From: Glaciozyma antarctica PI12 | Taxonomy: Eukaryota > Basidiomycota > Microbotryomycetes > Kriegeriales > Camptobasidiaceae | Length of the DNA: 64,000 nucleotides | Assembly (NCBI GenBank): GCA_002917775.1 | Contig: KZ627150.1 | Location: 1,248,307 to 1,312,306 of the forward strand | Reading direction: 5' to 3' | Shown here: in pieces, positions 1 to 64,000 of the stretch | Layout: every line of letters begins with the position of its first letter | Numbering within the stretch: position 1 is the stretch's first letter | Translations under genes and position numbers: made by a program | The notes under the pieces: model-generated | What the model saw: only the letters and a program-made list of their open reading frames with translations | What the model was told of the DNA's origin: nothing | Database searches by the model: none

Positions 1-3000
1 GGCCGACGCACGACGCTCAGCAGAGCTACTCTCTCTCGACCGCGCGAAGAGCTCGTTCTTCCAGAACGTCAGCCATGAGCTACGGACGCCTTTGACGCTG
101 ATCCTGGGGCCGCTCGCGGACGTGCTCGCCCACCAAGAGCTGCTCTCAGGCGTGAACCGAAATCGACTGCTTACGGTTCAACGGCACGCGAATCGGTGAG
201 TCCTGCTCTGGGGCTTTGGCGGAGACCAGGAGCTGACTTCAGCGGCAGGCTGTTAACGATGGTGAACAAGGTGCGTCCCTTCGCTCGAGCTTAGCAATCT
301 CGCTGACACGCCTGCCCTCCAGCTTCTGGATTTCTCCTCGCTCGATGGAGGACGGATGCGGGCTCAGTTCAGGCCCGTCAACCTGGTGCGTTCTGGCACT
401 CTGCCACATGCGCGCCAGGTGCTCACGATTCATCCAGGGAGCACTCACGCGCGACCTCGCAACTTTGTTCCGGGACGCAATCGAGCGAGGCAAGATCAAC
501 TACATCATCTCGTGCGACGAGGATCCTCCAGACAGCTTGCCTATCTACCTGGCGTGAGTCCTATTGTCCCTGCGCAAGGAATATCGGAACTGAGGCTGAT
601 GTTATCTCGCAGACCGGAGCTCTGGGAGAAGGTCGTGTTCAATGTGAGCTTTCTCGTCCGCCTCACTCGCACTATATCTGACGAATGTCGCCCAGCTCGT
701 TGGGAACAGCTTCAAGTACTGCCTCTACGGCGAGATCGAAGTCTCAGTGCGGTCGACCCTGGCGGAGGCCGTCGTATCCGTTCGCGACACCGGCGTCGGG
801 ATTCCTCAAGAGGAGCTCGGCCACATCTTCGAACGGTACGTCCACGCCTTTCCTAGCTACGTCTCAGTTGCTGACATCATCTCGCTCGTCAGATTCCATC
901 GTGTCGAGGGCACCTCTCGCACAGCCACCGGGACCGGTATCGGTGCGTGCTGTCGCGTATCTTGAATTACCGAGCTGACCTTTCCTCGCTTCAGGACTGG
1001 CGCTCACGCTCGAGATCGTCAAGCTTCTTGGAGGCGAACTGGAAGTGCAGAGCGAAGTCGGCAAGGGCTCGACGTTCTCGTGAGTCAACGCCCATCTGTC
1101 GCAGCGTCTCCTGCTGATTCCACCTCGCCAGCGTCCGCTTCCCTCGCGGATTCACGCATCTGCCCATCGAACAAGTCGAGCACGAAGCTGCAGTCGAGAT
1201 CGTCAAGCCCCCGGCGCAGCGGAACCTCTCGATGTGCGTTCTCTTCGCGCTTTGAAGCTTGCTCGTCGCTGACCCTCCCATGCGCCACAGCATCGAAGAA
1301 GCTGCTTCATGGCGGCACGATATGGCGCTGGACCGCGATACGCTCCACTCATCGGCATCCAGTTCGGGCGGGTCGGTGAGCGGCTCCGCAGACCGCTCCT
1401 CTCACGAGGACTACATCGTCTCGACGGGTCTGTCCTTCCATTCTCGTGAGCCCGCTTTCGGAATCTGACTCTTCGGTCGCAGAGCTTCTCAACCTCAAGG
1501 ACTGCACGGTCTTGCTCGCGGACGACGCGAACGACATTCGCAGCTACGTCGCGAGCATCCTCTCCAAGTCGTTCCACGTCGTGCAAGTCGCCGACGGCCA
1601 AGCCGCCCTCGAATACGCTCTTCAAAGCCCTCCTTCTCTGATCGTGACGGACGTGATGATGCCTCGGCTGGGTACGTCGTCCCTATGACGAGCTCGGTTT
1701 GTCAATGCTCATTTGAGTTTGTTCCTGCAGACGGTCGTGGACTTCTCGCTGCCCTGCGCGCCAATCCCACGACGGCGTTGACGCCTGTGCTCTTTCTTTC
1801 GGCTCAGGCGGGAGCAGAGGCTCGCGCAGAGGCGCTGGAAGCAGGCGCCGACGACTACCTCGTCAAGGTAGCTCGATTTCTGCTCACTTTCGACCCCGAC
1901 TGATCGTATCGCTTGTCAGCCCTTCCAAGCTCGAGAGCTTGTCGCACGCGTCAACACTCATTTACAGCTCGCAAGGATGCGCGCCGAACTGGAGAAGCGA
2001 GGTGAGAACGGCCTCTCGCATCCGATGCCGTGCCTTAGCTAACGCCTTCGCTCCAAAGTCCAGGAGCGGACTAGCGCTCTGATCGTGAGCGAGGCGCGAT
2101 ACCGTGGATTGGCCGACCGCTACGCGACTCTCACCATCCTCTCGCCTGTGGGCATCTTCTTGAGCGACGACAAGGGCAACCTCAGCTGTGAGTTTTCATC
2201 TTGGCTCGTCCACCTGGGGACTCACTCTTTTCTGCAGACGCGAATCCTCGGTGGCATGAGATTTCTGGACATCCTCTCGAAAAGCCTCTCGCGGAGTGGC
2301 GCGACAGCATCCTTCCCAGCGACCTGGAACGCACCGAGGCGTCTTGGAACGCTGCGATCAACGGGTCTCTGGTCGAGCATTGCGAGTTTCGCTTTCAGAA
2401 GGGCAACTGGGTTACGCTGGAGGTGAGTGTCTGACTCGCCCGCTCGCTGAACAGGATGCTAACCTTGCGGTGCAGCTTCGAGCCTTCCACGACGTCTCAT
2501 CCAGTAACGGCTTCGTCGGCGCAGGTGGGCCTCGTCCCGTTCTTCCTGGTGATGCAAAACTGACGTCTCCTAGTCACCGACATTACCATCATCAAGAAAG
2601 CGGAAGCGATCACCCTTCAAATCGTTGAGCAGCGCGCGCTGGATGCCGAGGAGAATCGTCGGAATCAAGAGCACTTTATCGACATGGCTTCGCACGAGCT
2701 TCGAAATCGTGCGTCTTTCCTTCCTTCTCGCGACAGACTCGTCCTAATGTAACTGGCAACGCAGCTCTCAGCGGCGTCTGGCAGAATGCCGAGGTTGGTG
2801 TTGTTTTCGCATCTTCTCCCGAACGCAAGCTCATCATCCGACTCCAGATTCTGTCAAGCAGCCTCCAGCATATCTCTACGCTCGTCGAGGGGATGCGCGA
2901 AGGACACGTTCTCGATCGCGGTACGCTCGAAACGCTCAGCCGCGAGCTGGAGGAGAACTTGGAAGCGGCGGGAGCTATCATTCTGTGCGCGACGCACCAA

Positions 3001-4646
3001 GGACGTATCGCCGATGGTTCGTGCTCCGTTCCTGCTTGAAGTACGGCTGCTAACCTCGCATGCAGACATTTTGAACGTCTCGAAAGTTCAGATGGGGCTC
3101 CTGACCATCAATCCGCTACCTCTCGACCTCACGGCCAAAGTCAAGGAGAAAGTCAGAATGTTTGAAGTGTGAGCGCAGACCGGGATTACGAAAGGGATCT
3201 CTCACTGATGGTAAGGTGCCTTCAGCGAGTGCGTTCAGAAGGATATCGCCCTCTCGCTCGCAGTGGACGACTCGATCGCCGCCCTCAACGCGGAATGGAT
3301 CTTCGGCGACGGCGCTCGTATCTCTCAAATCCTCATCAACATGCTCTCCAACGCCGTGCGCTATACGGCGGAAGCTCAGCATCGCACGATTGTCGTGCAC
3401 GTCGCGGCTTACGCGGGTCGACCAACGACCAACGAGCGTTCGCTTAGGGTGGCGGAGCCACAGTTTATGGAGGTTCCGACGGAGAACGTTTGGATTGTGG
3501 TCGGGTGCGTCGGTCCTGCGCTCTACTCAAAGATTGCGAGCTCATTGAGTGATTATGCAGCGTCGAGGATTCGGGCAAGGGACTCAGCTCTGCGGAGCTC
3601 GATCGGCTGTTCGAACGCTTCGCGCAGGCGAATCCCAAGAGCGACCAGTACGGTGGCAGCGGACTCGGTCTCTTCGTCTCGAAGAAGCTCGTCGAGCTTC
3701 ACTCTGGCTTCATCGAGGTCGAATCCGCTCCCGGTCAAGCGGGTCTTCCGCTGCGTCAAGTCGAACCGAGAGCTGAGTCTCGCTCTGCAGGGGAGCATCT
3801 TCCGTTTCGCCATTCCTGCCGCTCGTGCGCCCTCCGAGCCGACTATCGCCACCGCCTCACCACCACCGTCGGGGGAACCTTCGCACGTCGGCCGAACCAA
3901 CAAGCGACCCGCGAGTAACTTGGGCCGGACTAGATTCAGTTCGAAGAGCGCCAAGACGGGTGCGGAGTCCCACTCGACGCAAGAAGAACCCGCGTCGCCA
4001 CCACCTGCTCCTTTGCACGTCCTCGTCGTCGAGGTGCGCAACTTTTTCCCTACCTCACTCGCGTGATCACTCACCCCTGTCTCGCAGGACAACCTCATCA
4101 ACCAAAAGGTCATGGTGCGCCAGCTCAAGCTCGCCGACTTTCTCGTAACGGTCGCGAGCAACGGGCAAGAAGCTCTCGACCTCCTCCTCTCGCCAAAATC
4201 TACGACCATCGGACCTACGAAGATCGATGTAGTGCTCATGGATATCGAGGTGCGTCTCTCCAGATTCGCTCCAGCGCACGTACTGACTCGCCTCCACTGA
4301 AGATGCCAGTGATGGATGGCCTCACGGCGATTCGAAAGCTTCGCAAACTCGAAGCTGACGGGGTCGTTCCGGTCCACTTCGTCAGTCTCCTTCCTCCTCC
4401 CTCCTTCTCCCATCCTTACGTTCTTTCAGGGTGTTATCGGTGTCACTGGCAACGCTCGTCAAGGTCAGATTGACGCGTGTCGAGAAGCAGGGTTCGACGA
4501 CGTGAGTTCCTCCCTCTCTCTCGTTGTTTAGGAAGGGGCTGACCCGAGGGAGGAAGGTGGCGATCAAGCCTTATCGAATGGCGGAACTGCTGGTACAGAT
4601 CCGGAAGCTGTTGGAGAAGCTGTTGGAGAAGGAGGAGCGAGCGTAG
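1..4646 (+). CDS. Double hybrid histidine kinase (two HK modules, two receivers), 5' end outside window
   Basis: Two-component signalling protein read through about 18 short introns; the N-terminus lies before base 1. Domain order: first H-box at 60-110 (core [13 protein letters not shown]), first HATPase near 700-1080 (DTGVGIP then TGTGIGLAL), receiver 1 near 1500-1980 (acidic pair ADD, phospho-acceptor Asp in VTDVMMP, Lys in YLVKPF). A PAS domain follows near 2100-2600, then a second H-box near 2690 ([12 protein letters not shown]), a second HATPase near 3250-3830 ([14 protein letters not shown]) and receiver 2 near 4020-4640 (VVEDN, MDIEMPVMDG, AIKPYRM). Both H-boxes keep His and both receivers keep Asp, so both phosphorelay modules look competent. 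It should feed an Ypd1-type phosphotransfer protein. Stop TAG at 4644-4646. The ligand and the upstream sensor domain cannot be seen. The last codons hold a 12-bp tandem repeat (KLLEKLLEK). Confidence 0.93.
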
Positions 4647-4840: not shown

Positions 4841-7522
4841 CTACGCCTTCACAGAGCCAATCACGGTCGAGGCGGCGTACTTCGAGATAACGTTGGCCTC
4901 TACAACCCCAAACACACATCAGTATCCGCTCTCAACAACGAAGGAAGGGAGAGGAGGAACGTACCGTGAACCATGAGGAACTCCTCCGTCGCATCGCGTC
5001 CAGCGTAAAGTAGGATCGCGTCCAGCGTACCTCGCAGGGTCTACATCACACTCATCAGCGTCGCTTACGAAAGAAGGGAGGGAGAGAGGAACGCACGGTC
5101 TGGCAGGAAGTTCGTCACGTCCAGGACTGTGAGCGAGGTCAGCACCGGTGCAGAAAATCGAAAAGCGAGGGGGACGCACCCTGTCCCGAAATGACGACCC
5201 AGCAGTCGTCCTTAGTCGTATGCTTCGCCACCTCCTCCATCGTGTACTGCTTCATCACCGTGTACTGCTTCATCACCCACCTTCTCCACCTTCTTACCTG
5301 CTGCGTCTCAGCGACCTTGACGCTAGGCGCTCCAGCCTCGTCCCACGAGAATTCGAGATGAACCTTTTTCGACTCGGGGTCGATACGAATCGTCGTTGCC
5401 ATTCCGAGGTGGCCGCCGACTTGGCCGAGACGAGAAGCGGCGGTCTGGGAGGAGGTGATGGACTTGAGGAGGTAGGACGCGGCCTCGTCTCCTGCGACAC
5501 GACCAAAGACGACGCAGCCGCTGCGAAAGCGTGTAAGCATGCGCGTGCGGGGGTGGGGGAGGAAGCGAGGAATGAGGGAGAAACGTACAGGAGGGAAGAG
5601 CCACCGAGACGGTTCGCACCGTGAACTCGTGAAGGCGATTTCTCCAGAGGCGAAGAGGCCGGGAATAGGCTTGCCAGCGGTGTCGATAACGCGCGAGTGG
5701 TCGTCGATCTCGAGTCCTCCCATCGTGTCTGCGAATGCGACGTTAGGAACGGCTGCGGGGAGGAAGCGGGGGACGGACAGTGGAGGACGGGAGTCATGAC
5801 GGCGACGTTGAAGGGACCGCTGTTGAGGCTCCAGTCGGTGTTGTGGAAGCTGTCGTCGTCATCGTCATCGTCAGCCTATACTCCTGGGACACACGCTCGA
5901 GGGAGAGGAACGCACAACTTCTTGCCAAAGGGATCCGTCTTGGGGTCCTTGGTCACCTTGACGTAGTCGGCAAAGACCTGAGCGAGCTTCTCCTCGGGCA
6001 GTCCCATCTCCTTAGCGAGCTCCGCGCCCGTCTCGAAGCGCTTCATAAGTCCACGACCGCAGTAGTGCTATCCGTGCGAAAAAGCGAGTCAGTTTCACTC
6101 GCCAAAGTCGCGCAAAAAGGAAACGCACCTTGCAGTGCCACTCGATCTCCTTGCTCGCCTGTCCGTTGAGGACCAAGCGAATAGGGAACTTGCCATTCTT
6201 CCACATCTCGCCGGTAACGTAATCGCGGTGACCGAGCTCGTCGGCGAACCGGTTCCCCTCGTTGTCAAGGAGGAGTCCTCCGACTCCACGAAGCGCTTCG
6301 GCGGCGAGGAACTTGACCTTGGCGTCGGGGTCCTTGGGGTCGACGAGACCTGTTTGTGGAGAGAGGTCAGCTTTGCGACGGGCGGCGATCGAGGGGATCG
6401 GGAGGGTTAGACGTACCGGTAGGGTGAACCTGGACCTTGTCGAGGTCGATGCCCTTGCCTCCGATGTCGATAACCATCTTCTGTCCGTCTCCAGTGCTGC
6501 GATCGAGGAGGGCGAAGTCAGTTTCGCAAAACTTGGAAGAGCGAGGAGGAACGCACCAGTGGTCTCCGTTCGTGGTAGGGAGGTGCATGAGATCAGGGCG
6601 GTACCTGTTGAGGAGTCCATCCTTGGAGAAGTCCGCAGCGTAACCACCTGCGCGTCGTCGTCGTCGTCGTCAGCCCCTATTTCTCCTTCCCGATCTCGGC
6701 CAAGTCGCGGCGAAACAAGAACGCACCAGTAGCGAGAACGACGGGACCGTACTCCTTAAACGTCTTGCCATCGTGCGTGTACTCAACACCGATAACGACG
6801 TCACCATCCTTGATGAGCTTGGTCGCGGCAGCCTTCTTGATAATCTGAACGCGGTTGGGCTCCTTCTCAGCGAGTTCCTCGAGCGCCTCCATCTGGGCGT
6901 ACTGCGCGCGTTCATCCGAGTCAGCTGCTGAAGCCGCGTAAAGCGAAGGAGGAACGCACAGTGATGGTCATGCCGGGGAACGAAGTTCCGCCGCGGTGAG
7001 TGCGCTCGTACGAGTGTCCTCCCAAACGCGAGACCTTGCTGAGATCGAGGCCGAACCTGCAAACGCGCTCGTCAGCTCCCTCGTCCTCCTTCAACTGCAG
7101 GGCAAGCGCCTCACTTGTCCACGAGCCAGTTGACGGCGTCTCCCGACTTGCCGGTGAGGACCTCGATGAGGTCGTCGCGCGCGAGTTCACGAGCCTGCGG
7201 TCATCTACAGCTACTCCCTCGAATCCAACACGGAAAGGGGACGACTCACCGACTTCTTCGTGTCATCAAAGAAGGCCTTGGGGGTATCAGGAATGCCAAG
7301 CGCCGCCTGCGCCTTGGTTCCAGCACCGTTGATACCAGAGGTAGCCTTGGTCGAGTTTCCACCAAAGAAGGGGTTCTGGCCAGCTGGTCAGCTGGGGGGG
7401 ACTCGCGGGGGAATGAAGGGGCGAACCTTGTCGAGAACGAGGACGTTGGCTCCGCGCTCGTGGAGGGTGTGGGCGGCGCTGAGGCCGGAAAGACCACCGC
7501 CGACGACGATGACTCGGGACAT
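4841..7522 (-). CDS. Soluble fumarate reductase (FRD1/OSM1 type) fused to a C-terminal cytochrome b5 domain
   Basis: FAD-dependent fumarate reductase. Starts MSRVIVVGGGLSGLSAAHTL (Rossmann GxGxxG) at 7522. Conserved flavocytochrome c elements follow: GGNSTKATSGINGA, VQVHPTG (catalytic-region His), GNRFADELGHRDYV, PVLHYTMGG and GGVHGANRLGGSSLL (Arg). A b5 domain follows (YTMEEVAKHTTKDDCWVV, VLDVTNFLPD, AGRDATEEFLMVH, then ISKYAASTVIGSVKA and stop at 4841). Family knowledge: these enzymes reoxidise FADH2/NADH by reducing fumarate to succinate; the b5 fusion occurs in several fungi. Roughly a dozen introns. Oddities: the HPGG heme-ligand loop near 5028-5042 is only read with one base fewer, and an exact 18-bp tandem duplication sits at 5241-5276. 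Two introns carry triplet microsatellites next to the branch point. Whether the encoded b5 domain is functional is uncertain. Confidence 0.92.
5241..5276. repeat. Exact 18-bp tandem duplication in the fumarate reductase gene
   Basis: Unit CGTGTACTGCTTCATCAC occurs at 5241-5258 and again at 5259-5276. On the minus strand it duplicates six residues (VMKQYT) just before the cytochrome b5 domain. Confidence 0.95.
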
Positions 7523-8599: not shown

Positions 8600-9575
8600 T
8601 TAAGGCTGGACGTTGGCAGCTGCGTTCTCCGAATCAGCGAGAGCCACCGTGCGGAAAGAGGGAGAGACGTACCGAAGTTGGAAGCGGGGTAGACGTTTCC
8701 AGGAGGGTTGTACTGCCGCACGAAGCGTCAGCGAGAGCGAGGTAGCCGGAGAGGAGAGGGACGCACCTCGCAGACATAATAGTTCGCAGGCCCGTACGAA
8801 GCAGGGAAGATCCCACTACAGCTCGCCACCGCGCACCCAAGCTGAGTCGTCGCCTTCCACACCACTTGGGTGAAATGACTGCTCCCTCATCATCAGCAAG
8901 GCGCGCAAGGGAGGAAGGGGAGGGACGGACCTGTAGTTAGGCGTAGCAGGAGTGTAGTCCACTGATTCGTCGGTCCACATCTTGATTCCCTGCGCGATCG
9001 TGTTCGACCCCGTCATCGCCTGCCCCGCACACCATCAGCTCCTTCCCCTTCCCCAACACGCAAAACAGGAACTCACAGCCAAGTTCTCACCCCAAGGTCC
9101 CACAGCCCCTTGCGAATGCTGGAAGACACACTTGTTCGCCCAAGTCTGTGCGGCGGAAGCGAGAGTGTTGTTCCATACCAGGGCATTGGCGCCGTGCTGG
9201 GCCCGGAAGGTGTTGTGGGACGATAGGGCGAGTTGCTGGAGAGAGCCGGCGGTGGGGGGAGGCGACGGCGGTGGTGGTGGCGCGAGTGGTGGTAGCGCGC
9301 GTGGTGGTGCTGGGCTTCGTGGTGGTGCTAGCGCGAGTAGTGGTGGTGGAAGCGCGGGAGGTGGTCGAGACCTTGACCGTAGTACTGACTGCTCGGGTAG
9401 AGGTGGTGGTGGCGCGGGTGGAGGAGACGGGGTAGGTCTGGACGCCGCGTTGGCGCTTGATGAGGAGGTTGGGAGAGCTGCCGATGAGGGCTAGGTCGAC
9501 GAGGGGGGCCGGAAAGGCTGAGGCGAGAGTAGCGGCGAGAAGAGCTCCGAGAGGAAGGACGGCGGAGAAATGCAT
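8600..9575 (-). CDS. Secreted CAP/SCP-domain protein (Pry1/PR-1 like) with Ser/Thr-rich stalk
   Basis: Starts MHFSAVLPLGALLAATLASA at 9575, a clear signal peptide. A roughly 60-residue Thr/Ser/Arg-rich stalk (TTTRASTTT-type repeats, probably O-glycosylated) leads to a CAP domain: SHNTFRAQHGANALVWN, WANKCVFQHSQG, GPWGENLA, MWTDES, SHFTQVVWKATTQLGC, NYYVCEYNPPGNV, then a short tail and stop at 8600. The CAP cavity His/Glu/Glu/His set is present. Fungal Pry proteins bind sterols and fatty acids outside the cell; that role is inferred here. Three or four introns lie in the 3' half. The stalk and the CAP domain are in different frames, joined at a run of six G (plus strand 9254-9259). Five bases there would give one continuous protein. 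Confidence 0.88.
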
Positions 9576-10260: not shown

Positions 10261-10287
10261 CTCGCATTCAATCCCTCATTCGGCGCA

Positions 10288-12268: not shown

Positions 12269-13245
12269 ATGCTGTCGCTCCACGACCGCGAGGCGCAGTT
12301 GATACCTTTTCCCCCTTTGGGAGGAAGCTACCGGTACGAGCTGGATCCCCGAGGAATCTGTTGCGGAAGCGGTCGATACAGGCCTTCATGCTGCCCGATG
12401 CGCAGGTTGGTCGAGGGCGCTCTGGAGGGAAAGAGGGGAGCTAACACGTCCGCACGCAGCCCTACTTCGCTCCCAAGCTCCGAACGACCTGCGCCTAGTC
12501 TTTCCTCGAGCGTCGGGCCCTTCCCTCGAGCTCTGGACGAACGCCGACATGCTCTCCACCGCCTCTCCCTACTTCTTCACTCTCCTAAACTCTTCCTTCG
12601 CCGAATCCACCGTCGTAGGGCCTTCTGAACGCCGACGATCCGATCCTCCCCCAGCCGCAACGCTCGAAGCTCCCGGCTCTCTCGAGTTCGACGACTCGGA
12701 CGACGAAGGCGACGAGCTCACCGCCGAGACGCTCTCCTCCCTTCGTATTCCCTCAGCGCGAAGTCGTTGTCGCCGGAACCTCCTACACGACATACGAAGC
12801 TCTCCTCTGCTACCTCCTCACCTCGCACCTCACCTTCGCGCCTCTCCGCCGCTCCCACCTCCCCGATTCCTCGCACCAGAATCCCGCCACCGAGTCACCT
12901 CACAAAGCTTACCTCGCCGCTCAACGCTCTGCTAATCCCCTCCTCCCCCTCCCGACCTCTCCAAAGTCCCTCTACCGCCTCGCCCACCTCCTCGACCTCC
13001 CCGCCCTCCAGCAACTCGCTCTCACCGCCCTCGGTCGCAGTCTTGGGACCCAATTTGTAGCGTGGGAAGTCTTTGGGAATGAGCGTGGTGTGTACGAGGA
13101 AGTGAGGAAGGTGGAGCTCGAGTTTGCGAGGAGGAATTGGGCGGAGGTCAAGGGGAGTGAGGCGTACAAGGAGGTCAAGGAGAGGAGGGAAGAGTTGCCG
13201 TACTTTACGGAGGTGCTGATGGAGTTGAATGAGATGTTTCTTTGA
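12269..13245 (+). CDS. BTB/POZ-domain protein, paralogue 1 (frame broken)
   Basis: First of four paralogues in the window. A 5' exon ending HAARCA is joined by a phase-1 intron (about 12404-12457) to APNDLRLVFPRASG, LELWTNADMLSTASPYFFTLL, an acidic DDSDDEGDELTAETL linker, REVVVAGTSYTTYEALLCYLL and TSHLTFAPLRRSHLPD. The conserved C-terminal region is SPKSLYRLAHLLDLPALQQLAL, VAWEVFGNERGVYEEVRKVEL and ELPYFTEVLMELNEMFL, stop at 13243-13245. BTB domains mediate dimerisation and often recruit Cullin3; that role is inferred. The linker and the REVVV segment lie in different frames, with a +1 shift somewhere in 12731-12765. The start at 12269 is tentative: its frame does not match the frame that aligns with the other paralogues. 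Either a damaged gene or a sequence error. Confidence 0.7.
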
Positions 13246-20536: not shown

Positions 20537-21477
20537 ATGAATCACTCAAACCACGGCTCCACTGCCGCAGCAGGCACGACGGGCGCCTGCAACGTCTCCA
20601 TGATGTGGAACTGGACTGTCGTGGACTCGTGTTTCATCTCGGAGCAGTGGCACGTCCGCTCAAAAGCTGGCTTCGTAGGGACCGTCATCGGGGTACGCAC
20701 TCCTCTCCTCCCCTCTTCCTCCTCTCCACCGATCTCTGCGGAGGGCCTCCATCACGCGTGCGCGCGCTAATCACGCCAGCAGGTCTTCCTAATCGCCGTT
20801 GCTCTCGAGGCTTTCCGCCGCATCGGGAGGGAGTACGATCTCTCGATCCGTCGGGCCTACTACGCTTCTGACATCGCGGCGCTCGAGATGCTCGGGCAGG
20901 GAGGGAGCGTCAGGCCGTTCCGGTGAGTCCGTTACTGCGCGCCAGAGGACGTGGGCTGACGTGATCGAGCAGGCCGACGTTCGAGCAGCACGCCGTTAGG
21001 AGCACGTTTTATGCGGTGCAGTTTGGAAGTGCTTGTGAGTGGGCTGCGCGAGCGGAGGACCAGAAGGGCGAGGCTGATGGCGATACGCAGATATGCTGAT
21101 GCTGATCGGGATGTACGCTCGTCGTTCCTTCTCTCCTCTACGCGGCTGACAGTCCCCTCAGGTCGTTCAACGGAACTGTCATCCTTGCGATCTTCGTACG
21201 TCCTCACTCCTGCTCCAGCGAGCTTCTCGCTGACGGCTTTCGCGTCGACAGGCTGGCGCTTTTATCGGACACCTGATCTCGGCGGTGCGTTGACTCCCTC
21301 TCCTGATGAAGCACATGCTGATTGGCTTTCGAACAGAGGGACACGTTGAAGGGAGAAGAGGTGGTGGACGTGCCGGCGAGGAGTGCTGCCGTTGATCTTC
21401 GCCCGGTCTTGTTGAAGGTACGGCTCCCCTCTCCAGTTCTCTCTGCGTTGGCTTACTGACCACTCTTATAGTTTTAG
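20537..21477 (+). CDS. Ctr-family copper transporter, paralogue A
   Basis: Starts MNHSNHGSTAAAGTTGACN, then MMWNWTVVDSCFISEQWHVRSK and TM1 (GTVIGVFLIAVALEAFRRIGREYDLSI). Next come STFYAVQFGSAYMLMLIGM (TM2, with the Ctr MxxxM motif as MLIGM), SFNGTVILAIFAGAFIGHLIS (TM3 with GxxxG-type packing) and tail RDTLKGEEVVDVPARSAAVDLRPVLLKF, stop at 21475-21477. Trimeric Ctr proteins carry Cu(I) across the plasma or vacuolar membrane. The short N-terminus with His/Asn but few Met motifs resembles the Ctr2/low-affinity type. Five introns. Its paralogue lies at 39436-40321 on the other strand. Copper-responsive regulation is likely by family but I could not identify a site. Confidence 0.93.
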
Positions 21478-21956: not shown

Positions 21957-23030
21957 ATGCAGCGCAATGGCTCTCTACTCTACGACGAAGGTCCATCCTG
22001 TGCGAGCGAGCAGGCTGACCGCCACAAACCTATCGTGGAGCAGTACCGTGTCGCACTCGACCGGGTGAAGACTGAGAACCGGAAGCGGAGGGAGCAACTG
22101 GAGTTGTCGAAGCTGGTGCCCGTCGGAAACGTTCCAGCGGCTGATCGTGCACAACGGGTTATAGGTGAGCTTAGTCCAGGACGTACCTCTGCTGCTGAGC
22201 AGCGCTGATTCTTCCTGCAGGGATGTTTCTCACGAGGCACGTGAGCGACGTACGCCTCTAATTACCCCGCAAAGGTCGCGCGGATCTGGAACTCTGGGCA
22301 AACTCCGACACGCTCAAGGACTCGTCGCCGTGGTTCAAGACGCTGCTCGAATCGGACTTTGCGGAGAGCGTTACCGCCAGCAGCTCGAAGCGTCGTCGCA
22401 TCGAGCCTATCTCAAGCACTATCAAGCGCGAGGACGTCGCCGCCGACTTTGAGGACTCGGACGACGAGGGAGACGAACTCACCGCGAGCCTCCTCTCTCC
22501 CTCGGCGACGGAGGAGTCGTGCGACATCCCGTTCCGCGAAATCACACTCCCTCAAACCGCCTACACGACGTACGCCGCCTTCCTGACCTGGCTCCACACC
22601 TCGCACCTCGACTTCGCGCGCCTCAAGAGCAATTTCACCTTCTCCTCCCTCCCCTCTGCCCCCGACTCGACTCCCCAAGACCGTCACCGCGCCGAGCCCT
22701 CCGCTTTTCGCCAAAAGAACCCTCATATCACCCTCCCCGCCTCGCCGAAATCCATCTACTGCCTCGCACACCTCCTCGAGATCCCCTCGCTCAAAGCTCT
22801 CGCCCTCATCGCGCTCAAAGGGGAACTTTTCTCAGCCAATTATTGCGGTGGAGTTGTTTGGAGATGTCAGTGGGTGTTATGAGGAGGTGAGGAGGGCCGA
22901 GTTGGGGTATGCGAAGGCGCATTGGGCGGCGGTGGTGTCGGACGGGATGAAGAAGGTCAAGGAGATGGCGGGGAATGGGGAGCTTCCATATTACGTTCCG
23001 ACGATTGGGGAGCTGGTGGATCAGCTGTAG
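21957..23030 (+). pseudogene. BTB/POZ-domain paralogue 2, disrupted
   Basis: Starts MQRNGSLLYDEGPSCASEQ at 21957. The 5' exon ends VPAADRAQRVIG and joins by a phase-1 intron, at the same position as in paralogues 1 and 3, to MFLTRHVSDVRL. The same frame then meets TAA (22259-22261) and continues LPRKGRADLELWANSDTLKD, SPWFKTLLESDFAESV, the acidic linker, FREITLPQTAYTTYAAFL, SPKSIYCLAHLLEIPSLKAL. After a G4 run (22820-22823) the conserved frame shifts by one base to FSQPIIAVELFGDVSGCYEE and ELPYYVPTIGELVDQL, stop at 23030. One stop plus one shift in otherwise conserved sequence suggests recent loss of function. The shift alone could be a consensus error; the stop is harder to dismiss. Confidence 0.72.
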
Positions 23031-27392: not shown

Positions 27393-27429
27393 GGCGACAG
27401 CGTTCCTTCAGAGCTAGACTTGCTGACGA

Positions 27430-36690: not shown

Positions 36691-38939
36691 TCATGCGTCC
36701 TCGCCAATGATATCTGCGATCCAATCCGCCATCGCAGGTTCTTGCCCCGGTGCGAAATCGAACAACCGATTGTCTGCGACGGGGAGGTGAGTCCCTAGCC
36801 CAACAGTGAAACCGAGAAACGTACAGCAGGGGGTTCCCAGAGCCGAGAAATGTATGTACCTGCGCTCGTTCGTCACCCCGCGAGGAGAGAAGGGTGGAAG
36901 GACTCACGGTTCTGCCGGCTTCAACTTCTCCCCACATCGAAAACAGAAGTGCGTCGAACACCTCGAGCCTGTTCCTCATCAGCTCCCTCCCATCACACAG
37001 AAAAAGGACGGACGGACTCACACTGCATATGATTACACCCCGCACTCTTCTCAACCTGCACCGCACACACCGGACAAGGCGTAGCGTGCTCCTCCATCCA
37101 CTCCCTATTCACTCGCTCCTCCTCTACGACCGCTACGAGTCGACGGATATTGGCGGAGCCGTAGCGGAGTTCTAGGGCCGCTTGTTCGGAGGGAGTGCCG
37201 GTGAGGAAGCGCGAGACGATGGCGGAGGATTGGGGGAGGGAACAGGGGTTGCGGGTGCCGTGCCCTGTGAGGACGTTAGTTGTAGTGTAGGAGAGGAGAG
37301 GAGAGCGTACAGCCTCGGCGACAGAAGACGCAGTAGGAGTAGCCCTGTGCGGTGGATTAGCGACGTGAGGTTGCAGAGGAGAGAGCGACGCACGCAAGAT
37401 CCGCAGATACGTAGCTTCTCGTCGTCTGCCGCCTTCGGTACCGCAGCTTGACACGCATCGCGGGGGCAGAACGACATGGACGGATCTATGTACTGCCATC
37501 AGCTCCCTCCAATCGCCCCCCAGGAAGAGGAAACGAACTCACCACTCTCCACCCTCATCTTCTCCTTCAACCTCTCCCACCTCTCCCCCAGCTCAACCCC
37601 GACGATCCCATCCAGTTCCTCCCTCCCAACTTCGCCAATCCGAGGTCCTGCGATCCCGCTCTTCGCCATCTCCGACCGCGCCTGAACGCACGCGACCGAG
37701 GGGCAATGAACGGAGAGAACGAGGCCTTCGGTGATGAGGAGGGTGAAGTAGGAGACGAGGCATGGGAGGCAGAATCTGCGTTTTTAAGGGGGTCAGCTGC
37801 GGGTGGAGGAGGAGAGGAAGGACGTACACGTCGGAACAGAAGAGGCGAATGCACCGGAGACCTTTTTTGGCGTCGAGGCAGATTCCGCAGATGAAATTGG
37901 AGGCGTGGAAGGCGGTTGAGCGGGAGAGACGGTCGTGCGAAGCGAGGATGGGCGAGAGTGGCGCCGAGGTGCCTGAGTGGTCGTTAGGAGTTGTGCGCAC
38001 GTCTGGGTTGGAACGTAACGCACGGTGAGAGAGTACGAGAGGGAACTGGAGGTCGAGCAGCTGGATGAGCGACTCCCCTCGCAGCATCTCAACCATGAGC
38101 CAGAGGCATTCCTCGCCCGTCCACACTGCGATCCTATCAGCTCTTCCTCCAAGCAACCACGCAGACAACGTACCTCCTCTCAACCCCTTCAGAAGCTTCT
38201 CCACCCACTCAGGCCTCAACCACCCACTCTCATCCCTCAGCTCAACCTCAGGCGCCCTCCCTCCCCCGGACTACCCCCTCCCTAAGCAACAGCACCAACT
38301 CCAGCGGGCGGGAGGTACCGCAGCATCATCTTCCTCTCCTTCTTTTCCTCCCGAAGTGGCAGGGGAGACGGTAGTGGCGGAGGAGTAGGGGTCGGGAGAG
38401 GGGCGAGGAGGGGGGGAGTGTGGGGGGTTGAAGAGAGGGTGAGGACGCCGGCGGGGGGTCGGGAGGGTACAGGATGGCGTGTAGGCTTTGGTCGAGGGAC
38501 GGCGGGCGGGGTGGTAGGAAGAAGGGAGGGGGGAGGAGGAGCGATGGTCTTGCCGCCACGGCGACGGCGAGGCTTGCTGGGCGGTGGTGTAGTGGCGGAG
38601 AGTGGGGTAGCCGTAGTTGTAAGGACTTGAGTACGGCGTGCAGTATCGTGCGCCGGTGGTGGTGCGCTCGATAGTCCTCGATCCTGCTCAGCGGTAAGCT
38701 TGCTCCCGCTCGCCACTGCCGGCGCTTCCTCCTCCCAGTCCCATATCTCGACCGCCCGATCTTCGTTCCAGTCCAAGTCGACCCGGATGCGTACGTGTCG
38801 GCCGGTGGGAGTGAGAGAGGAGGAGACGATATCGGGGTAAATGGCCTGCGTCCTCGGTGGTAAGGCAAGGAGAGGATGGGGTGGGACAAAGACGTACGGA
38901 TAGGGCGAGCAGCTCTTCCTCTTGGAGCTCAGCGTTCAT
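36691..38939 (-). CDS. RWD-RBR E3 ubiquitin ligase (RNF14/ARA54 type)
   Basis: Starts MNAELQEEELLALS then AIYPDIVSSSLTPTGRHVRI (RWD opening) at 38939. The RWD domain is split by an inserted Pro/Ser/Thr-rich stretch of about 140 residues before LRYLPP and APEVELRDESGWLRPEWVEK. RING1 follows (FICGICLDAKKGLRCIRLF, then VFCLPCL), an IBR part (FCPRDACQAAVPKAADDEK, LRICGSCGYSYCVFCRRLWHG), and RING2 (TPCPVCAVQVEKSAGCNHMQ with the catalytic-type Cys next to NHM, then HFCFRCGEKL). It ends WIADIIGEDA at 36691. RBR ligases form a ubiquitin thioester on RING2; RNF14 acts on stalled ribosomes and crosslinked proteins. Between LRYLPP and APEVELR (38240-38310) at least two frame changes interrupt the RWD strand and helix. 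The rest is intact. Confidence 0.83.
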
Positions 38940-39435: not shown

Positions 39436-40321
39436 TCAGCAGCAGCACTCTCCCCGACTCGCTGGGGTATCGCCGCCAGCGTTGATCGTATCCCTCTGCT
39501 CAGGAGAAGCACATCAGCTACCGCGATGAGAAGCTTAAAGGGAGAACGTACCGCCGTAATCAGGTATCCAACGAAAGCGCCAGCCTGAGGAGGGAGAAGT
39601 CAGCGACCGAGTCGGAGAAGCGGTGGGAGGAGAACGCACGAAGATTGCGAGAATGATAGCACCGTTGTAGTACCTGCAATCGACAGGTTTTAGCTAGCAC
39701 GCAGAGACGCAGAGAGGAGAGCAGACAAACATGGCGAGCAGCATGAGCATATCTGCGAAAAAAGCGTCAGCGCGCTCCCCACCGACTTCAGCTACAAACC
39801 TACAAGAAGTCCCGAACTGCACACCGTAGAAGACGCTCCTGATCAAGTGCTGGGTAAAGGTCGTCCTGCTCTCACCATCAGCGAGGACGACTCGGAAGAA
39901 GCAGGAACAGCCGCACCTGAACGGCCTAACCACCTCGTCCTTCCCCACGCGCGCTCGCCGCAGCCGTCTCGGAGAGGTAGTAGGACTTCTTGATACTCGC
40001 ATCGTACTCCCTGCTCAAGCGGCGGAATGCCTCGAGCGCGACGACGATAAGGAACACCTGCGAGAAGGGTCTTCTTAGCGCAGGGCAGAAAAAGTTTGAG
40101 AGGCCGTACGCCGATGACGGTGCCGACGAAGCCTCCGATAGAGCGGATGTGCCATTGCTTGGAGATGAAACAGGCGTCGATGGTGGTCCAGTTCCACATC
40201 TGGAGGAGAGGAGTCAGAGTCTTGACGACGAGGACCCTTTGAGAAGGTCGTGACTGACCATAGATATCTTGCAGGCGTGCTCAGTGGCGCTGGAAGCGGA
40301 GGAGTGCGAGCTGTGGTCCAT
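39436..40321 (-). CDS. Ctr-family copper transporter, paralogue B
   Basis: Starts MDHSSHSSASSATEHACKIS, then MMWNWTTIDACFISKQWHIR, TM1 (GTVIGVFLIVVALEAFRRLSREYDASI), a variable loop, RSVFYGVQFG and YMLMLLAMYY (TM2, MxxxM as MLLAM), NGAIILAIF and AGAFVGYLITA (TM3). The tail is RDTINAGGDTPASRGECCC, stop at 39436. It is clearly paralogous to the gene at 20537, with the same N-terminal block and similar intron positions, but it ends in three cysteines. C-terminal Cys/His clusters in Ctr proteins can bind copper at the cytosolic exit, so the CCC end may be functional. A one-base frame change would give a different, longer tail, so the end is less sure than the core. Confidence 0.9.
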
Positions 40322-44314: not shown

Positions 44315-45287
44315 TCAGAAGAACTCCTCAAGCCCCAACAACCCCAGCACCTCCCTCCCCTCCCATTCTCTCGTACTGAGAGCCCACGCCACGAGTGCTA
44401 CCATAGCTCCCACTCCCACTCCCCCCCAAAATTCCTCCAGCCTCCACCTCTGCTTGACCCGCGGACGTCCCTTCATCCCCAGCTCCAACCCTGGCAGCCC
44501 ATCCATGCTCTCCGCATTTTTCTTGACCCAGTACGCTTTGAGACCGTTCGGGATGCGAGAGGGGTCGGAGGATTCGTCGTCCTCGATGCGCTTTTTGAAG
44601 AAATTGAGGAGAGTTGGCCTGCGATGCGGGATCAGCTCTTTGTTCAGAGTGCGGAGAGAGGCAAAAGTCTCACCGATCTTCTTTGTAGTCGTAGAGGGGG
44701 ACAGAGTAGCCGCAGGAGGTACCGACTTTGTGAATGTCAACCCAGATGATAGATCGAACGCCTGGGAGTCGACGAGCGTCGCCTGGTGGAACGAGAGCGT
44801 TGAATTCCGGCGTATCGACTTCATATACCTTGCCTGCGATTCAATCTCAGCTATGCATTGGCAGGAGTAAGGAAGAACAACGCACCTTTCCCGAATAGCC
44901 GCACGACCCGAATAGCCGCACGATGTGAACGCCATGAAGAGGATCGTGATCCGGCCGTTCTCCTTCAGGTGAGACACGGTCTCGTTCCCTGACCCTGTAA
45001 GCTCGAGGTACCAGCATGCCTTGGGCCCAACGAGGTGGAACGTATCGTGCCCTGTCGCGTGGCGAGTTAATGCGCGTCGAGACACTCAGCAGGGAAGCTC
45101 ACCTTTCGGGCTCGTGTTGACGTGGTGCTCCTTGGAGAGTGGCGCGGTAGCTACGAAAAAGATCTTTTGTTCCCTGAGTACGGAAGTGGTGAGCGGACGG
45201 GAATGGCGGGGTAGAGCAGCAAGCGCACTCGACCCATTCTGCAAGGTTAGGATTCTCCTGAGGGATCTCGTCGTAGAAGGCTCCCAT
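44315..45287 (-). CDS. PNPOx-like FMN-binding split-barrel protein with C-terminal membrane anchor
   Basis: Starts MGAFYDEIPQENPNLAEWV at 45287, then REQKIFFVATAPLSKEHHVN, TSPKGHDTFHLVGPKACWYL, ELTGSGNETVSHLKENGRIT, ILFMAF, KVYEVDTPEFNALVPPGDAR, RSIIWVDIHKVGTSCGYSVP, LYDYKEDRPTLLNFFKKRI. A linker and one predicted TM helix (GVGVGAMVALVAWALS) precede the end LGLLGLEEFF, stop at 44315. The order matches fungal pyridoxamine-phosphate-oxidase-like proteins of unknown substrate (yeast YLR456W/YPR172W group). Between LFMAF and KVYEVD the conserved segment (GPPRIVRLFGKG in relatives) is replaced by a perfect 17-bp tandem duplication (44890-44923) that puts IVRLFG out of frame. The TM anchor is an unusual addition. 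Confidence 0.82.
44890..44923. repeat. Exact 17-bp tandem duplication inside the PNPOx-like gene
   Basis: Unit CCCGAATAGCCGCACGA at 44890-44906 and 44907-44923. The length is not a multiple of three and it disrupts the conserved coding frame. Confidence 0.95.
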
Positions 45288-45712: not shown

Positions 45713-48564
45713 ATGGCTAGGCTGCTGTACGTCTCTCTGGCTATACACGGTGAAGTGGAGGGATAGCTAACCCGGGCTGCTGTAGCTACTCCAAGTCCAA
45801 GGTGTACCTCGTGAGCGACCTTCCCTCTCGGCCAGCAACAGGACATAGCTGACCCTCGCACAGCACCCCAGCTCGTACCTCCGCGATAACATCCCCGGCT
45901 TCATCTCCATCGTCCAGGTGCAAAAGGGCTCGTCACCAGAGTACCTGCTGGCCTGGATCCCCGAGGCCTCTATCGAAGGAACGCCCGACTTTGAGTCCTA
46001 CGTCCTCGTCGAGCTCGAGTCCCCCTCCTCCAGTACGTTCCTCCTACGCTCCTCCACCCCGCTAACCCCTAGCGCAGACCCAACTCTCGTCACCCTTCCC
46101 CCTTGCAACACTCACGCCTTCTCCATTCCCATTCGCACCCTCTACTCCCTCGTCGTCCAGCCCCCAACCCTCTCCTCCTGGTTCGGCAGCGCGACTCTCA
46201 ACCTATTCGGCGGCGACTCCCTTCCCCCTCTTTACTTCCACGACGAGGAATCCCGCTCTACCGTCCTCGACCGCGATCGTCGTGCAGCCGCTCTCGGAGC
46301 CCTAGGATCCTCCGCTGGCGCACCTGCCTCCATCCCTCCCAGTTGGGGCGGAGAAGCTCTCCTCTCTCAACTCCGGCTATACGCGCACGTCGTTCGCTCT
46401 CGCCTCGAACCCCACTTGTTCCTCGTCAATCCCAGTCGGATGGATATCGAAGTCCATTCGACGGCGTTGTTCGAGGACGAGGCGGTGCCGGAGGAGGCGA
46501 TGGCGAGATTGGGAGTCGAGGGGCAGGCGGGTAGGAGAAGGGAAAGAGAGGGGGAAGAGGAATTCGATACTGCATCAGAGTATGAATGGCGAGTATCCGG
46601 ACGAGGTGGGACCTGCGATGGACAACTTTACGTTCTCGGTCCTCAACTCTTTCTCTAGGATCACGAGGGGGTGAGTTCCCTCTTCTTCGCGAGTGGAGGC
46701 GGGGCTGATGAAGGACGCAGAGCTCGTTCCGCAGCGCAGAAGACGGCTCAATCCGTCCTCTCTCACCCCCTCGCCAAACCCATTATCAAGAACATCCCCG
46801 AGCCCATCGCGCACTTCGCCAACGCTCCCGGGGAGCTCACACGTCTTCAAGAGACCGCAGGCGTCGGGGTTTGTCCCTCCTCTCGCTCGCGTTCGAGCAT
46901 GACTGACGAGAGATGCAGTCGTACGATGCTGCGAGGGTGTATCTCGCTAAATGGGCGCGCATCGTGGCGGAGGAGGGAGAGAGGGCGAGGCGCGCAGAGG
47001 TCCATTTCTTAGGGCCGGGAGGGAGGGACGAGGATTCTGAAGTAGGGGCGTTCGAGGTCCTCGCTGTGCGTTCGTTCTCTCTTCTCCTGGGCGCGTGTGA
47101 AGCTGATGGGGACGCAGAGCACGTACAGTATTACGAGACCGAAATCGACGCGCGCGTATGGGACGCCGATCGTCGTTACGGAGTGGGCGGCGTGGTTTGA
47201 TGATGCGGGCAAGTTGATGCTGGGGGAGGACGAGGCGAAGAAGAGGATCTTTCAGCGGGTGCGTTCTTCCTTGGTTGGCATCGACTGTGAGAGTTAACGA
47301 GGAGGTTAGGGACTTGCGGAGGACGTGAGGAAGGACGTGTGGCCGTTTTTGCTCGACGTGTTTCCGTGGACTTCGTCGACGCAGGAACGCGTGGCGATCA
47401 AGGAGGAGAAGACGTGCGTTCTTTCTCGCTTCGATGAGGGAAGCGCAGCTGATGCGGGAGATGCAGGATCGAGTACGAGCGGCTCAAGATGATTTGGTAC
47501 AAGAACCCGACGGTGACTTCATCGGACGTCTACGCCGAAGAGTCACACCGTATCGGTTCGTTCCTATCCTCCCCTTCTCAGCAGCGACTAAGACTGACGG
47601 TCTCGCTACGCGCAGAGATCGACTGCCGCCGAACGGATCGCACCCACCCCATGTTCATGTCTCCCGAACTCGATCCCTCCGAACCCGCCGACTCCGCGCA
47701 TCCTCCCTCCAACATCCACGTCAAGAAGTGCGCCGACATCCTAACGACGTACGTCTTCGCCGCCGAAGACCGGGACTACGTGCAAGGGATGTCGGACGTC
47801 GGATTCGCCGCTGTATGTTGTTGCCGAGGCGGATGAGGTGATGGCGTTTTGGTGCTTTGGGACGTTGATGGAGAGGCAGAAGGGGAACTTTTTGAGGGAT
47901 CAGAGTGGGATGAAGAGGCAGTTGAGCGAGCTGCAGGCTCTCATCGCGCTCATGGATCCACAGCTGCACAAGCATCTCGGTACGTCTTTCCTCCCTTCCT
48001 TACGTTGAGTAACGCTAATTGACGAGCGATGCAGAGGATACCGGCTCGCTCAACCTCTTCTTCTGCTTCCGCTGGATCCTCTGCAGCTTCAAGCGCGAAC
48101 TCTCTTTCGACGCGACCCTCACACTCTGGGAGATCCTATGGACCGACCACCTCGGCACGCACTTTCACCTCTTCGTCGCGCTCGCCATCATCGAGGCGCA
48201 TAGGGATGTCATCATTCGGTACTTGCGCGAATTCGACGAGGTGCGCTCGCTTCCTTCCCTGGCTCTGCGACCAAAGCTGATCTTCGCACGGCAGGTACTC
48301 AAATACGTCAACGAGCTCTCGCAAACGCTCGGTATCGACGAGATCCTCACGGACGCCGAGGTGTTGTGCCTCACGTTCCGGCGAGTGGTGGACGTTGCCG
48401 ATCGACGGAAGGCGGAGGAGGAGGGAAAGAAGGCTGTCTCGGCTGGAGATTTGAGTAGAACGGACAAGGGGAAGGGCAAGGAGGGGGAGGAGGAGAGCGA
48501 GAGCGGGAGGGCAGTCGTCGAGGGGATGGAGGTTGACCCCGTCGTGCGAGCGTTGTTGGTTTAG
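45713..48564 (+). CDS. GYP7: Rab GTPase-activating protein Gyp7 (TBC1D15 family)
   Basis: Exon 1 MARLL joins YSKSKVYLHPSSYLRDNIPG FISIVQVQKG, the typical Gyp7 N-terminus. The N-terminal Rab-binding region (about 350 residues) includes HAFSIPIRTLYSLVVQPPTL, LPPLYFHDEESRSTVLDR, DNFTFSVLNSFSRITRGARS and IIKNIPEPIAHFANAPGEL. The TBC domain has WAAWFDDAGKLML, KRIFQRGLAEDVRKDVWPFL, HRIEIDCRRTDRTHP (IxxDxxR Arg finger), DYVQGMSDVGF (YxQ Gln finger), MAFWCFGTLMERQKGNFLRD, SLNLFFCFRWILCSFKREL and LWEILWTDHLGTHFHLFVAL. The charged tail ends PVVRALLV at 48564. Gyp7 stimulates GTP hydrolysis by Ypt7/Rab7 at the vacuole. Conserved sequence changes frame by +1 twice: near 46573-46598 and at 47811-47826 inside the TBC domain (YVVAEADEV). 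Confidence 0.88.
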
Positions 48565-61245: not shown

Positions 61246-63241
61246 ATGAAGTTCACCACTCTCGCCCTCTCGGCGACCCTCGTCGCCTCAGCTTTCGCAT
61301 CACAGGCAGCCGAACCTCGCGCCTTTGGACGCCGAGGCGATAGTGATGCCCCCCAGTGGATCAAGCGGTCAGTGCAGAACATGAAGCGTGAGTAGTCCGT
61401 CCTGTCTGCGAGGGAGGGAAGGGCCGCAGGACTCGAGGAATGCTGGAGCGTATCGAGGTCTTGCGGTCGACGAGCGGTCCGACACCTTGCTGACGAGTTT
61501 TCTCATTCTTCCCTGCTGTATAGGTCAAGGAGTCGTCCCTAACGGTGCCCGTGAGTCCTTCGAGAGTCTCTGGGGAGATGACGAAACTGCATCGAACGAC
61601 GAGCTGACGAGGTCATCCTTTCGCAGTCCTCCTCACAGTCGGTGCCAACGCCACCGCTGCCGACAACGGTACCGCCGCTGCCCTCGAGATCTCCTCCGAG
61701 GTTGAGATCCCCACCTACAACGGAACCGCTCTCTGGTACCGCGCCAACAACGAGACTGGAGCCTGCCGCGAGGTCTCGACGTGAGTTGACCTTTGCGCAG
61801 AATTTGGGGTTCAGCTCATTGACGTGTACCGTTCCAGCGACGAGGACCTTATCATCGGAATCCCTTCTGCGTTCTGGCCTTTCGCTGGCGTCGTCTCGGA
61901 TCTCTGCGGGGAGAAGGTCGTCCTCTACGCGGGCGAGAAGAAGTGCGTCCTTCCTCTCGGTCCCATTCTCTCCCCTCACAAACGCGTTCTCCTTCTAGCG
62001 TCACCGCCACTCTCCTCGATGCTTCCGGAGGAGAGTACGTCTCTCTCTCCGTCGGCGCTTTCCTCGCCCTCAGCCCCCTCACCGCCGGAATGATCTCGGT
62101 CCAATACCAATTCCTCAACCTCACTCTCGGCGCCTCCCTCAACGCCTCTCTCAACGCCACGATCCTCCAATCGACCCCTCTACTCGCCTCTAACGCCACT
62201 CTCGCCGACCCCTACCTCTCCCTTCAGGCCGACGTCTCGGCCGACGACACCCCCATCGCAGCCGTCTCCGCAGCTCTCAGCGTCGCCCTCCCCTCCGTCA
62301 CTCTCCCCACTCCTACCGTCGCTCCCACTGCCTCCTCCGTCGAGGCTGAGCCCACGACTTCGAGCGACAACGGAGCCTCCGCCTCACGCGCCTCTGCCCA
62401 ATCTGCCTCCTCCGCCTCCTCCGCTGCTGCCGCCCAGGCTGCCGCTTCGCAGGCCGCTGTCGAGCAAGCAAAGGCCCAGGCTCAGCAGGCTACCGAGCAG
62501 GCGGCTCACAAGGTCAAGGACGACGCGGCGCAGGCGGCGCAGAAGGCCAGGGACGACGCCGAGTGGGCGGCGTCGCAGGCGGCTTCGAGCTCGAGTGCTG
62601 CGGCTGCGGCTGCTAGCTCCAGCGCTGCTGCTTCGGCTCAGGATGTCAAGGATGCTGCTGCGTCCGCTGCGTCGGCGGCCGCTGCCGTTGTTACTCCTAT
62701 CGTCGAGGCTGCTTCCAGTGCGTCTTTTCTCGCTTTCGCGGTCGCTTCCCGTGCTGATACCTCGTTCCGCAGACGTCTTCACTGGTGGAAAGGGAACCTA
62801 CTTCTACGTGCGTTTATCTCCACTTCACGCGATGGTAGGAGCTGACGCTTTCCTTCGCAGCAAAACGGCGTCGCTGGAAACTGCGGCAAGGTCCACTCCG
62901 AGTCGTTCAAGGGCATCGCGATCGACCACGTCCGCTACGGCAGTGGCGAGAACTGCTGGAGGATGATTGAGGTCACTCGTACCGATACTGGAGCCAAGGT
63001 CGTCGCTCAGGTCGTCGACAACTGCCCTACGTGCCACAACAGCGAGTCTCTCGAGTGCGTATGATCCTCTCCAGATACTGGACCGTCACTGATGATCTTG
63101 CGCAGTCTTTCCGAGGGCGCTTTCCTCGAGATCGCGACCAAGGAGGAGGGCATGGTGCGTTTCCGTCCTTCTGCCTCGACGCGACGCTCGCTAATCTCCC
63201 GATTCGCGCAGGTCGACATCTCGTGGAAGTTCCTCGATTAG
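61246..63241 (+). CDS. Secreted protein with two double-psi beta-barrel (RlpA/expansin-like) domains
   Basis: Starts MKFTTLALSATLVASAFASQ, a signal peptide, followed by a dibasic WIKR site that could be Kex2-cut. Barrel 1: GTALWYRANNETGACREVS, DEDLIIGIPSAFWPFAGVVS, DLCGEKVVLYAGEKKVTATL, LDASGGEYVSLSVGAFLALS, with GMISVQYQFLNLT. A Ser/Ala/Gln-rich segment of about 150 residues follows (AQAAASQAAVEQAKAQAQQA, KVKDDAAQAAQKARDDAEWA), probably a helical spacer. Barrel 2: GKGTYFYQNGVAGNCGKVHS, ESFKGIAIDHVRYGSGENCW, VVAQVVDNCPTCHNSESLDL and SEGAFLEIATKEEGMVDISWKF, stop TAG at 63239-63241. Barrel 2 keeps the NCP/cysteine pattern; barrel 1 is more divergent. Relatives act at fungal or plant walls without known lytic activity. 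Several N-glycosylation sequons lie near the C-terminal end of barrel 1 (NLTLGASLNASLNATILQS). Confidence 0.85.
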
Positions 63242-63675
63242 CGGAACGGGTAGATATCTCCATAGAGTACTGCTCCCAGCAGGCCTGGTCGTCGTAGCAT
63301 CCCTCCCATCCTCGTGCCATGGACACTTGTTACCCCCTCGCCTCGCTCTCCCTACTTTTCTTTTCGTTCGCACCCCATCCCCTTTGCGTTCCGCCCTTGG
63401 AACGCGCTTTTGCGTAACTCTCTCTCTCTCTCTCTCTCGTAGTCGGCGATTGCTTCGACGGAGGACGTGTTCTGCTCGAGAGGATCGCGATTCAGGGAAG
63501 TGACGGCGACGAGTGCGAGACGCGAAGGCATTTCAGCGGGGGGTATCGAGAGCGGGGAATCCGGGGGAGTACAGCCAAAGGGGTGAACAGGGAGTAGCTA
63601 AAGGGGGTAAAAAGCGCAAACACAAAAAGGGAGTACTGCAAAATACGACGAAGATCAACACGCTCAAGAACCTCC
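63242..63675. other. Convergent spacer with a TC microsatellite
   Basis: About 430 bases between the DPBB gene stop (+) and the stop of the partial gene (-). It contains a TC run at 63419-63438. No gene is supported. Confidence 0.5.
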
Positions 63676-64000
63676 TCACCTCCCCTCTCCCTCCTCATAG
63701 ATACTCCACACCCCACGCGGCAACTCCCCCTCCCACGCGAACCCCCTCGGCAGCCCCTCGAGCCCCTCGACCCCCTGGAACCACTTCTCGTAATCCTCGA
63801 CCGCACCCCCAATCGGCCCCGTCTGCGCGCCAAAGTCCGTCTCCGCACCGCGGTACGCAGAAGACCGCGCGAGAGCGTCTTGCATGCCGGTGGATTCGTC
63901 GTCTGAGGGAGGAGAGGCTTCGTCCTTCGTCCCTCCGGCGCGAGGAGTAGGAGCGTCGAGGCCGGGCGTCTGGACGGGTGGGTCGTCGAAGCCCGCTGCG
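63676..64000 (-). CDS. C-terminal part of an unidentified protein, runs off the window
   Basis: Open minus-strand frame from base 64000 (AAGFDDPPVQTPGLDAPTPR) through DEASPPSDDESTGMQDALAR and GAETDFGAQTGPIGGAVEDY, EKWFQGVEGLEGLPRGFAWE to GVWSIYEEGEGR, stop at 63676. The last 50 residues are rich in Gly, Glu and Trp and look structured; the start is disordered and acidic. I do not recognise the family. Confidence 0.6.
   Translation of the reverse strand, partial: AAGFDDPPVQTPGLDAPTPRAGGTKDEASPPSDDESTGMQDALARSSAYRGAETDFGAQTGPIGGAVEDYEKWFQGVEGLEGLPRGFAWEGELPRGVWSIYEEGEGR

What the first reader, a model, noticed from the sequence alone, without database searches (positions are those of the whole stretch)
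1..64000. Recurrent +1 frame breaks in conserved genes across the window
In at least seven unrelated genes the conserved protein continues in a frame reached by dropping one base, or one base modulo three. They are fumarate reductase-b5 (about 5035), CAP (9254-9259), BTB copy 1 (12731-12765), BTB copy 2 (22820-22823), RWD-RBR (38240-38310, at least two), PNPOx (44890-44923) and GYP7 (46573-46598 and 47811-47826). The bias to excess bases, often at homopolymers or short duplications, is not what independent gene decay would give. Either the consensus has insertion errors or this genome undergoes frequent slippage. CHK1, FOX2, the MFS transporter, NAP and the anoctamin show no such break.
Basis: partly seen in the sequence, partly recalled or inferred. 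Interest (0 to 1): 0.72.

Follow-up and report, generated by a model that had tools for sequence, protein, structure and literature searches.

The report
Insertion errors in a fungal assembly

Summary
Most of the frame breaks are really in the sequence, but they are not special to this window and are best read as insertion errors of the assembly. The first GYP7 site is better explained by an intron; the RBR sites could not be established. One more break lies in fumarate reductase near 5626. A calibrated frameshift-aware gene finder gives the window (3 strong calls in 64 kb) the same rate as 26 other stretches of the genome (9 in 186.6 kb): about one break per 4.5-4.7 kb of coding DNA. Insertions outnumber deletions (10:2 strong calls) although both are detected equally well. 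Seven of ten strong insertions lie by a run of four or more equal bases. Breaks also hit mitochondrial HSP60, Hsp110, IPP isomerase and UTP13. Fifteen insertion sites share no recoding motif, the two BTB paralogues break at different places, and MutS-type genes are present. One point does not fit the commonest case: nanopore consensus errors are mostly deletions, so the technology stays open. Reads would settle it.

The parts
5020..5040 (-). frame break in the cytochrome b5 part of a fumarate reductase-b5 gene (HP-GG region)
   Evidence: INS 5025, survives to -10; both frames align to cytochrome b5 chains through the join, one-residue gap
   Evidence: INS 5626, survives to -7; aligned to urocanate and fumarate reductases through the join without a gap
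9250..9262 (-). frame break in a CAP-domain gene, in its Thr-rich linker, at a run of six C
   Evidence: INS 9256, survives to -14
12730..12765 (+). frame break in BTB copy 1
   Evidence: paralogue reads in one frame across this place; finder only at -5
22815..22825 (+). frame break in BTB copy 2, at a run of four G
   Evidence: INS 22818, survives to -14; paralogue reads in one frame across this place
44890..44923 (-). perfect 17-bp tandem repeat inside a PNPOx_N domain; the frame changes across it
   Evidence: (only at -5)
   Evidence: weak donor
47808..47826 (+). frame break in the TBC domain of GYP7
   Evidence: no gap at the join against TBC1D17; INS 47814 at -5
38240..38310 (-). RWD-RBR region claimed to hold two breaks; not established (low complexity, no homology across, no model spans it)

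Best explanation
The assembled sequence carries small indel errors, mostly single extra bases at or near base runs plus some short garbled patches, at about one per 4.5 kb of coding DNA across the genome. The true genes are very probably intact. Shown: the breaks, their genome-wide rate, the insertion bias, the base-run link, and their presence in genes that are indispensable in yeast (recalled). Inferred: that reads would not support the extra bases, and that they arose in a consensus made from noisy long reads or from two collapsed haplotypes.
For: Rate in the window equals the rest: strong in 64 kb versus 9 in 186.6 kb; weaker threshold 6 versus 19 (binomial p = 1.0 for both). Calibration: 148 of 300 simulated insertions and 148 of 300 deletions found with the right sign at penalty -10; 223 and 221 of 300 at -7; false (7 INS, 5 DEL) in 501 kb of error-free synthetic sequence. 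Insertions 10:2 (p 0.039) and 20:5 (p 0.004). 7 of 10 strong insertions have a run of 4 or more within 10 nt (16.9% of 4000 random coding positions), 3 of 10 a run of 6 (0.7%). Broken genes that align through the join to solved relatives: Hsp110/SSE1 with no gap over 179 residues, mitochondrial HSP60 at two places, IPP isomerase with no gap at the join, UTP13 with a 7-residue gap; NOP9-like by Pfam. The IPP isomerase and NOP9-like calls are weaker (survive to -8 and -7). The HSP60 patch also puts a stop in the first frame and replaces the PGGG-TAL/VAL letters seen in both aligned chains. Literature passages read: residual errors of long-read-only assemblies are mostly homopolymer indels that break frames (PMC8812927; PMC12007338); collapsing two alleles introduces indel errors (PMC8445201).
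Against: No reads were available and the technology is unknown. The excess is of insertions, while the passages read describe nanopore consensus errors (in one paper from simulated reads) as mainly homopolymer deletions. In 36,330 nt of profile-matched exons of five families one break showed as a sub-intron gap, fewer than the about eight that the finder's rate predicts, though that test misses breaks near exon ends or in unmatched stretches (it missed both in HSP60). Eight other PF00118 (CCT-like) loci carry no call. The first, less trained version of the finder made no call in the window at -10, and 6 in 18 other loci. Without the locus fetched on suspicion the strong tally is 9:2 (p about 0.065, by hand).
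Confidence: 0.88

Rival explanations
1. The extra bases are really in the genome and are by-passed in expression by +1 ribosomal frameshifting or by slippage on base runs, as in the ciliate Euplotes.
For: Breaks occur in genes that must work, many lie at base runs, and both flanking frames stay conserved.
Against: No known +1 site (nine motifs, recalled) within 30 nt of 15 insertion sites that I chose, and no shared heptamer beyond what random sets give (3 of 15; the best in 200 random sets was 2 to 4). The two BTB paralogues break at different places. The garbled HSP60 and fumarate reductase patches change conserved letters, which a frameshift would not undo. The review read in passages names Euplotes as the exception in frequent frameshifting (PMC5009743).
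Confidence: 0.03
2. The strain is a mutator or is losing genes: real frameshift mutations accumulated at base runs.
For: Link to base runs; some broken genes (BTB copies, CAP, PNPOx) may be dispensable. Ploidy is unknown, and a diploid could carry broken alleles.
Against: Breaks in HSP60, Hsp110, IPP isomerase and UTP13 would be lethal in a haploid (recalled from yeast); at least six MutS-family places are present (the MutL side was not tested).
Confidence: 0.04
3. The breaks are unrecognised introns or false homologies.
For: Probably true for the first GYP7 site; introns here are short, median 56 nt.
Against: At the sites tested by homology the joined frames align to relatives with a gap of at most 7 residues at the join, too little for an intron.
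Confidence: 0.03

Closest known systems
Residual homopolymer indels in long-read-only consensus assemblies (PMC8812927, PMC12007338; passages read)
   Same: small indels, enriched at base runs, breaking frames in many otherwise sound genes
   Different: insertions outnumber deletions about 5:1 here, whereas those passages stress deletions; some sites are short garbled patches or a 17-bp repeat
Indels from collapsing two haplotypes into one consensus (Trypanosoma brucei, PMC8445201; passages read)
   Same: apparent frameshifts and repeats of varying length inside intact genes
   Different: ploidy and heterozygosity of this strain are unknown
Euplotes-type frequent +1 ribosomal frameshifting (PMC5009743; passages read)
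   Same: many genes would need a frame change
   Different: no shared shift site; garbled conserved motifs; paralogues break at different places

Membership tests
Consensus indel errors | scattered over the genome at one rate | tested here: met
   3 strong calls in 64 kb in the window, 9 in 186.6 kb elsewhere; 6 and 19 at the weaker threshold
Consensus indel errors | hit indispensable genes too | tested here: met
   Hsp110, HSP60, IPP isomerase, UTP13; indispensability recalled from yeast
Consensus indel errors | enriched at base runs | tested here: met
   7 of 10 with a run of 4 or more versus 16.9%; 3 of 10 with a run of 6 versus 0.7%
Consensus indel errors | absent from accurate reads | not testable with these tools
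   no reads available
Nanopore-type consensus errors | deletions dominate (as in the passages) | tested here: not met
   10 insertions to 2 deletions with equal sensitivity
Programmed +1 frameshifting | a common slippery site | tested here: not met
   no known site at 15 of 15 insertion sites examined, no shared heptamer above chance
Programmed +1 frameshifting | site conserved between related genes | tested here: not met
   BTB1 and BTB2 break at different places, each whole where the other breaks
Mismatch-repair-deficient mutator | loss of MutS or MutL genes | tested here: inconclusive
   six MutS-family places present; MutL side not tested
Gene decay (pseudogenes) | confined to dispensable genes | tested here: not met
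Unrecognised introns | room for an intron and usable splice sites at the break | tested here: not met
   gap at the join at most 7 residues; met only at the first GYP7 site

The most novel reading that the evidence does not exclude
A fungus whose nuclear genes truly carry frequent +1 insertions that are corrected during transcription or translation without a fixed site.
Probability: 0.02. Interest if true: 0.92.

Novelty: not a real feature. Interest (0 to 1): 0.12.

Why it matters
If right, roughly one break per 4.5 kb of coding DNA means that a good part of the gene models of this assembly are cut or patched with false introns, and counts of pseudogenes, gene losses or odd introns from it should not be trusted. 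Other findings from the same genome that rest on a single frame break should be read with this in mind.

Tried and rejected
Adjacent-match test on five families (PF00118, PF00012, PF00227, PF00083, PF00004; 125 matches, 36,330 nt): mostly intron-sized gaps, one sub-intron break (Hsp110); a second candidate (estimated 34 nt) was an ordinary intron. TBC and SDR tables read by eye only: no sub-intron break seen. My first model of the fumarate reductase b5 site as a 22-bp duplication was dropped: the repeat is similarity within the exon. A first-model call in GYP7 at 47169 vanished with the retrained model. Tandem repeats of unit 6 or more lie within 25 nt of 6 of 25 calls against 8.8% of 1500 random coding positions: a mild excess, not pursued; the PNPOx repeat is not among those 25. 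The finder was trained on the same stretches that it scanned; gene models are often fused neighbours. Selection: locus L040 was fetched because a break was suspected there; without it the strong tally elsewhere is 6 insertions to 2 deletions, the whole tally 9:2 (two-sided p about 0.065, by hand) and 19:5 at the weaker threshold (p about 0.007, by hand). L031-L039 are PF00118 genes, not random; the 16 ten-kb stretches L041-L056 were placed without regard to content, two of them flank the window. The sign of the first HSP60 call is unsure (deletion, insertion). Two paper listings showed nothing that I could tie to this genome or its sequencing method; one search found no paper; some searches were used as listings to choose papers. 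PNPOx had no relative among solved structures.

Full report
What was tested. The window is a 64-kb stretch of contig C5 of a 20.0-Mb, 18-contig genome with about 60% G+C and many short introns (median 56 nt). It looks like a basidiomycete yeast; that is inference from memory, no tool named it. The finding says that conserved genes repeatedly continue in a frame reached by dropping a base.

The listed sites. I read the frames at each site, ran Pfam on single frames (no match for the BTB copies or PNPOx) and checked joins against solved structures. Fumarate reductase-b5: two breaks, the listed one in the cytochrome b5 part and another, unlisted, at the HGANRLGG motif; both sides of each align to relatives through the join. 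GYP7 second site: no gap at the join against TBC1D17. BTB copies: pieces 52%, 48% and 46% identical show that each copy is whole where the other breaks, so neither break is an intron. PNPOx: a perfect 17-bp tandem repeat lies between the two frames of one PNPOx_N domain. CAP: a run of six C in a Thr-rich linker, supported by codon statistics only. GYP7 first site: the gene finder uses a 52-nt GT-AG intron with a weak donor, whether or not frameshifts are allowed; I do not count it. RBR: no homology spans the claimed interval, no model spans it and no call was made there.

The genes said to be whole. The NAP-like model has one weak call at its first codons and the anoctamin region one just upstream of a plausible start. 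I judge these two false, but both are counted in the tallies below.

A yardstick. I wrote a spliced gene finder with explicit insertion and deletion states and trained it on the window and 26 other stretches of the same genome. Random single-base changes put into clean models were found equally for both signs: 148 of 300 and 148 of 300 at penalty -10, 223 and 221 of 300 at -7; error-free synthetic sequence gave 0 and 12 false calls in 501 kb. On the real sequence the window gave 3 insertions and no deletion at -10 (5 and 1 at -7); the other 186.6 kb gave 7 and 2 (15 and 4 at -7). The window is therefore average. Corrected for sensitivity and, at -7, for false calls this is one break per 4.7 or 4.5 kb of coding DNA. 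A first, less trained version had made no call in the window at -10 and six in 18 other loci. The finder alone sees GYP7 47814, BTB1 and PNPOx only at -5; these three rest on homology.

What the breaks look like. Insertions dominate, 10:2 and 20:5 (p 0.039 and 0.004). Seven of ten strong insertions have a run of four or more equal bases within 10 nt, against 16.9% of random coding positions, and three have a run of six, against 0.7%. Others are short garbled patches: in HSP60 the PGGG-TAL/VAL letters of both aligned chains are replaced and a stop appears in the first frame, while both sides align well.

Why errors. Hsp110 aligns to yeast SSE1 over 179 residues with no gap, through a break at a run of six C. 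HSP60 and IPP isomerase are broken as well, and so are UTP13, with a 7-residue gap at the join, and a NOP9-like gene. From yeast knowledge (recalled) a haploid cell could not live with most of these; the ploidy here is unknown. Recoding would need a signal: none of nine known sites (recalled) lies within 30 nt of 15 insertion sites examined, and no heptamer is shared above chance. A mutator would not spare the cell either, and at least six MutS-family places are there (MutL not tested). Residual homopolymer indels that break frames are a known weakness of long-read-only consensus (PMC8812927 and PMC12007338, passages read), frameshifts at long runs are known for one PacBio consensus method (PMC4853030, passages read), and collapsing two haplotypes adds indels (PMC8445201, passages read).

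What does not fit. The passages describe nanopore consensus errors as mainly deletions, while insertions prevail here, so the technology or the cause of the bias stays open. A simpler test by adjacent family matches found one break in 36,330 nt, fewer than the finder's rate predicts; it cannot see breaks near exon ends or between matches, and it missed both in HSP60. Eight other PF00118 loci had no call. Without the one locus that I fetched on suspicion the strong tally is 9:2.

Verdict. It is ordinary in kind; its use is as a warning for every gene-level claim from this genome.

Noticed in passing
   Followed up: partly
window 20537-21477 and 39436-40321: Two related small predicted membrane proteins with Met/His/Ser-rich starts, resembling Ctr-type copper transporters; the family name is recalled, not searched.
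   Followed up: no
window 259-4646: Large predicted hybrid histidine kinase (by eye) with no call at -7; a similar model with one strong deletion call lies in L047 6582-9349.
   Followed up: no
window: A short run of N is present; whether a scaffold gap or a withheld stretch is unknown.
   Followed up: no
L039 1560-1620 (mitochondrial HSP60): Patch where several letters of a conserved motif are changed and the frame shifts, so departures are not only single bases.
   Followed up: partly
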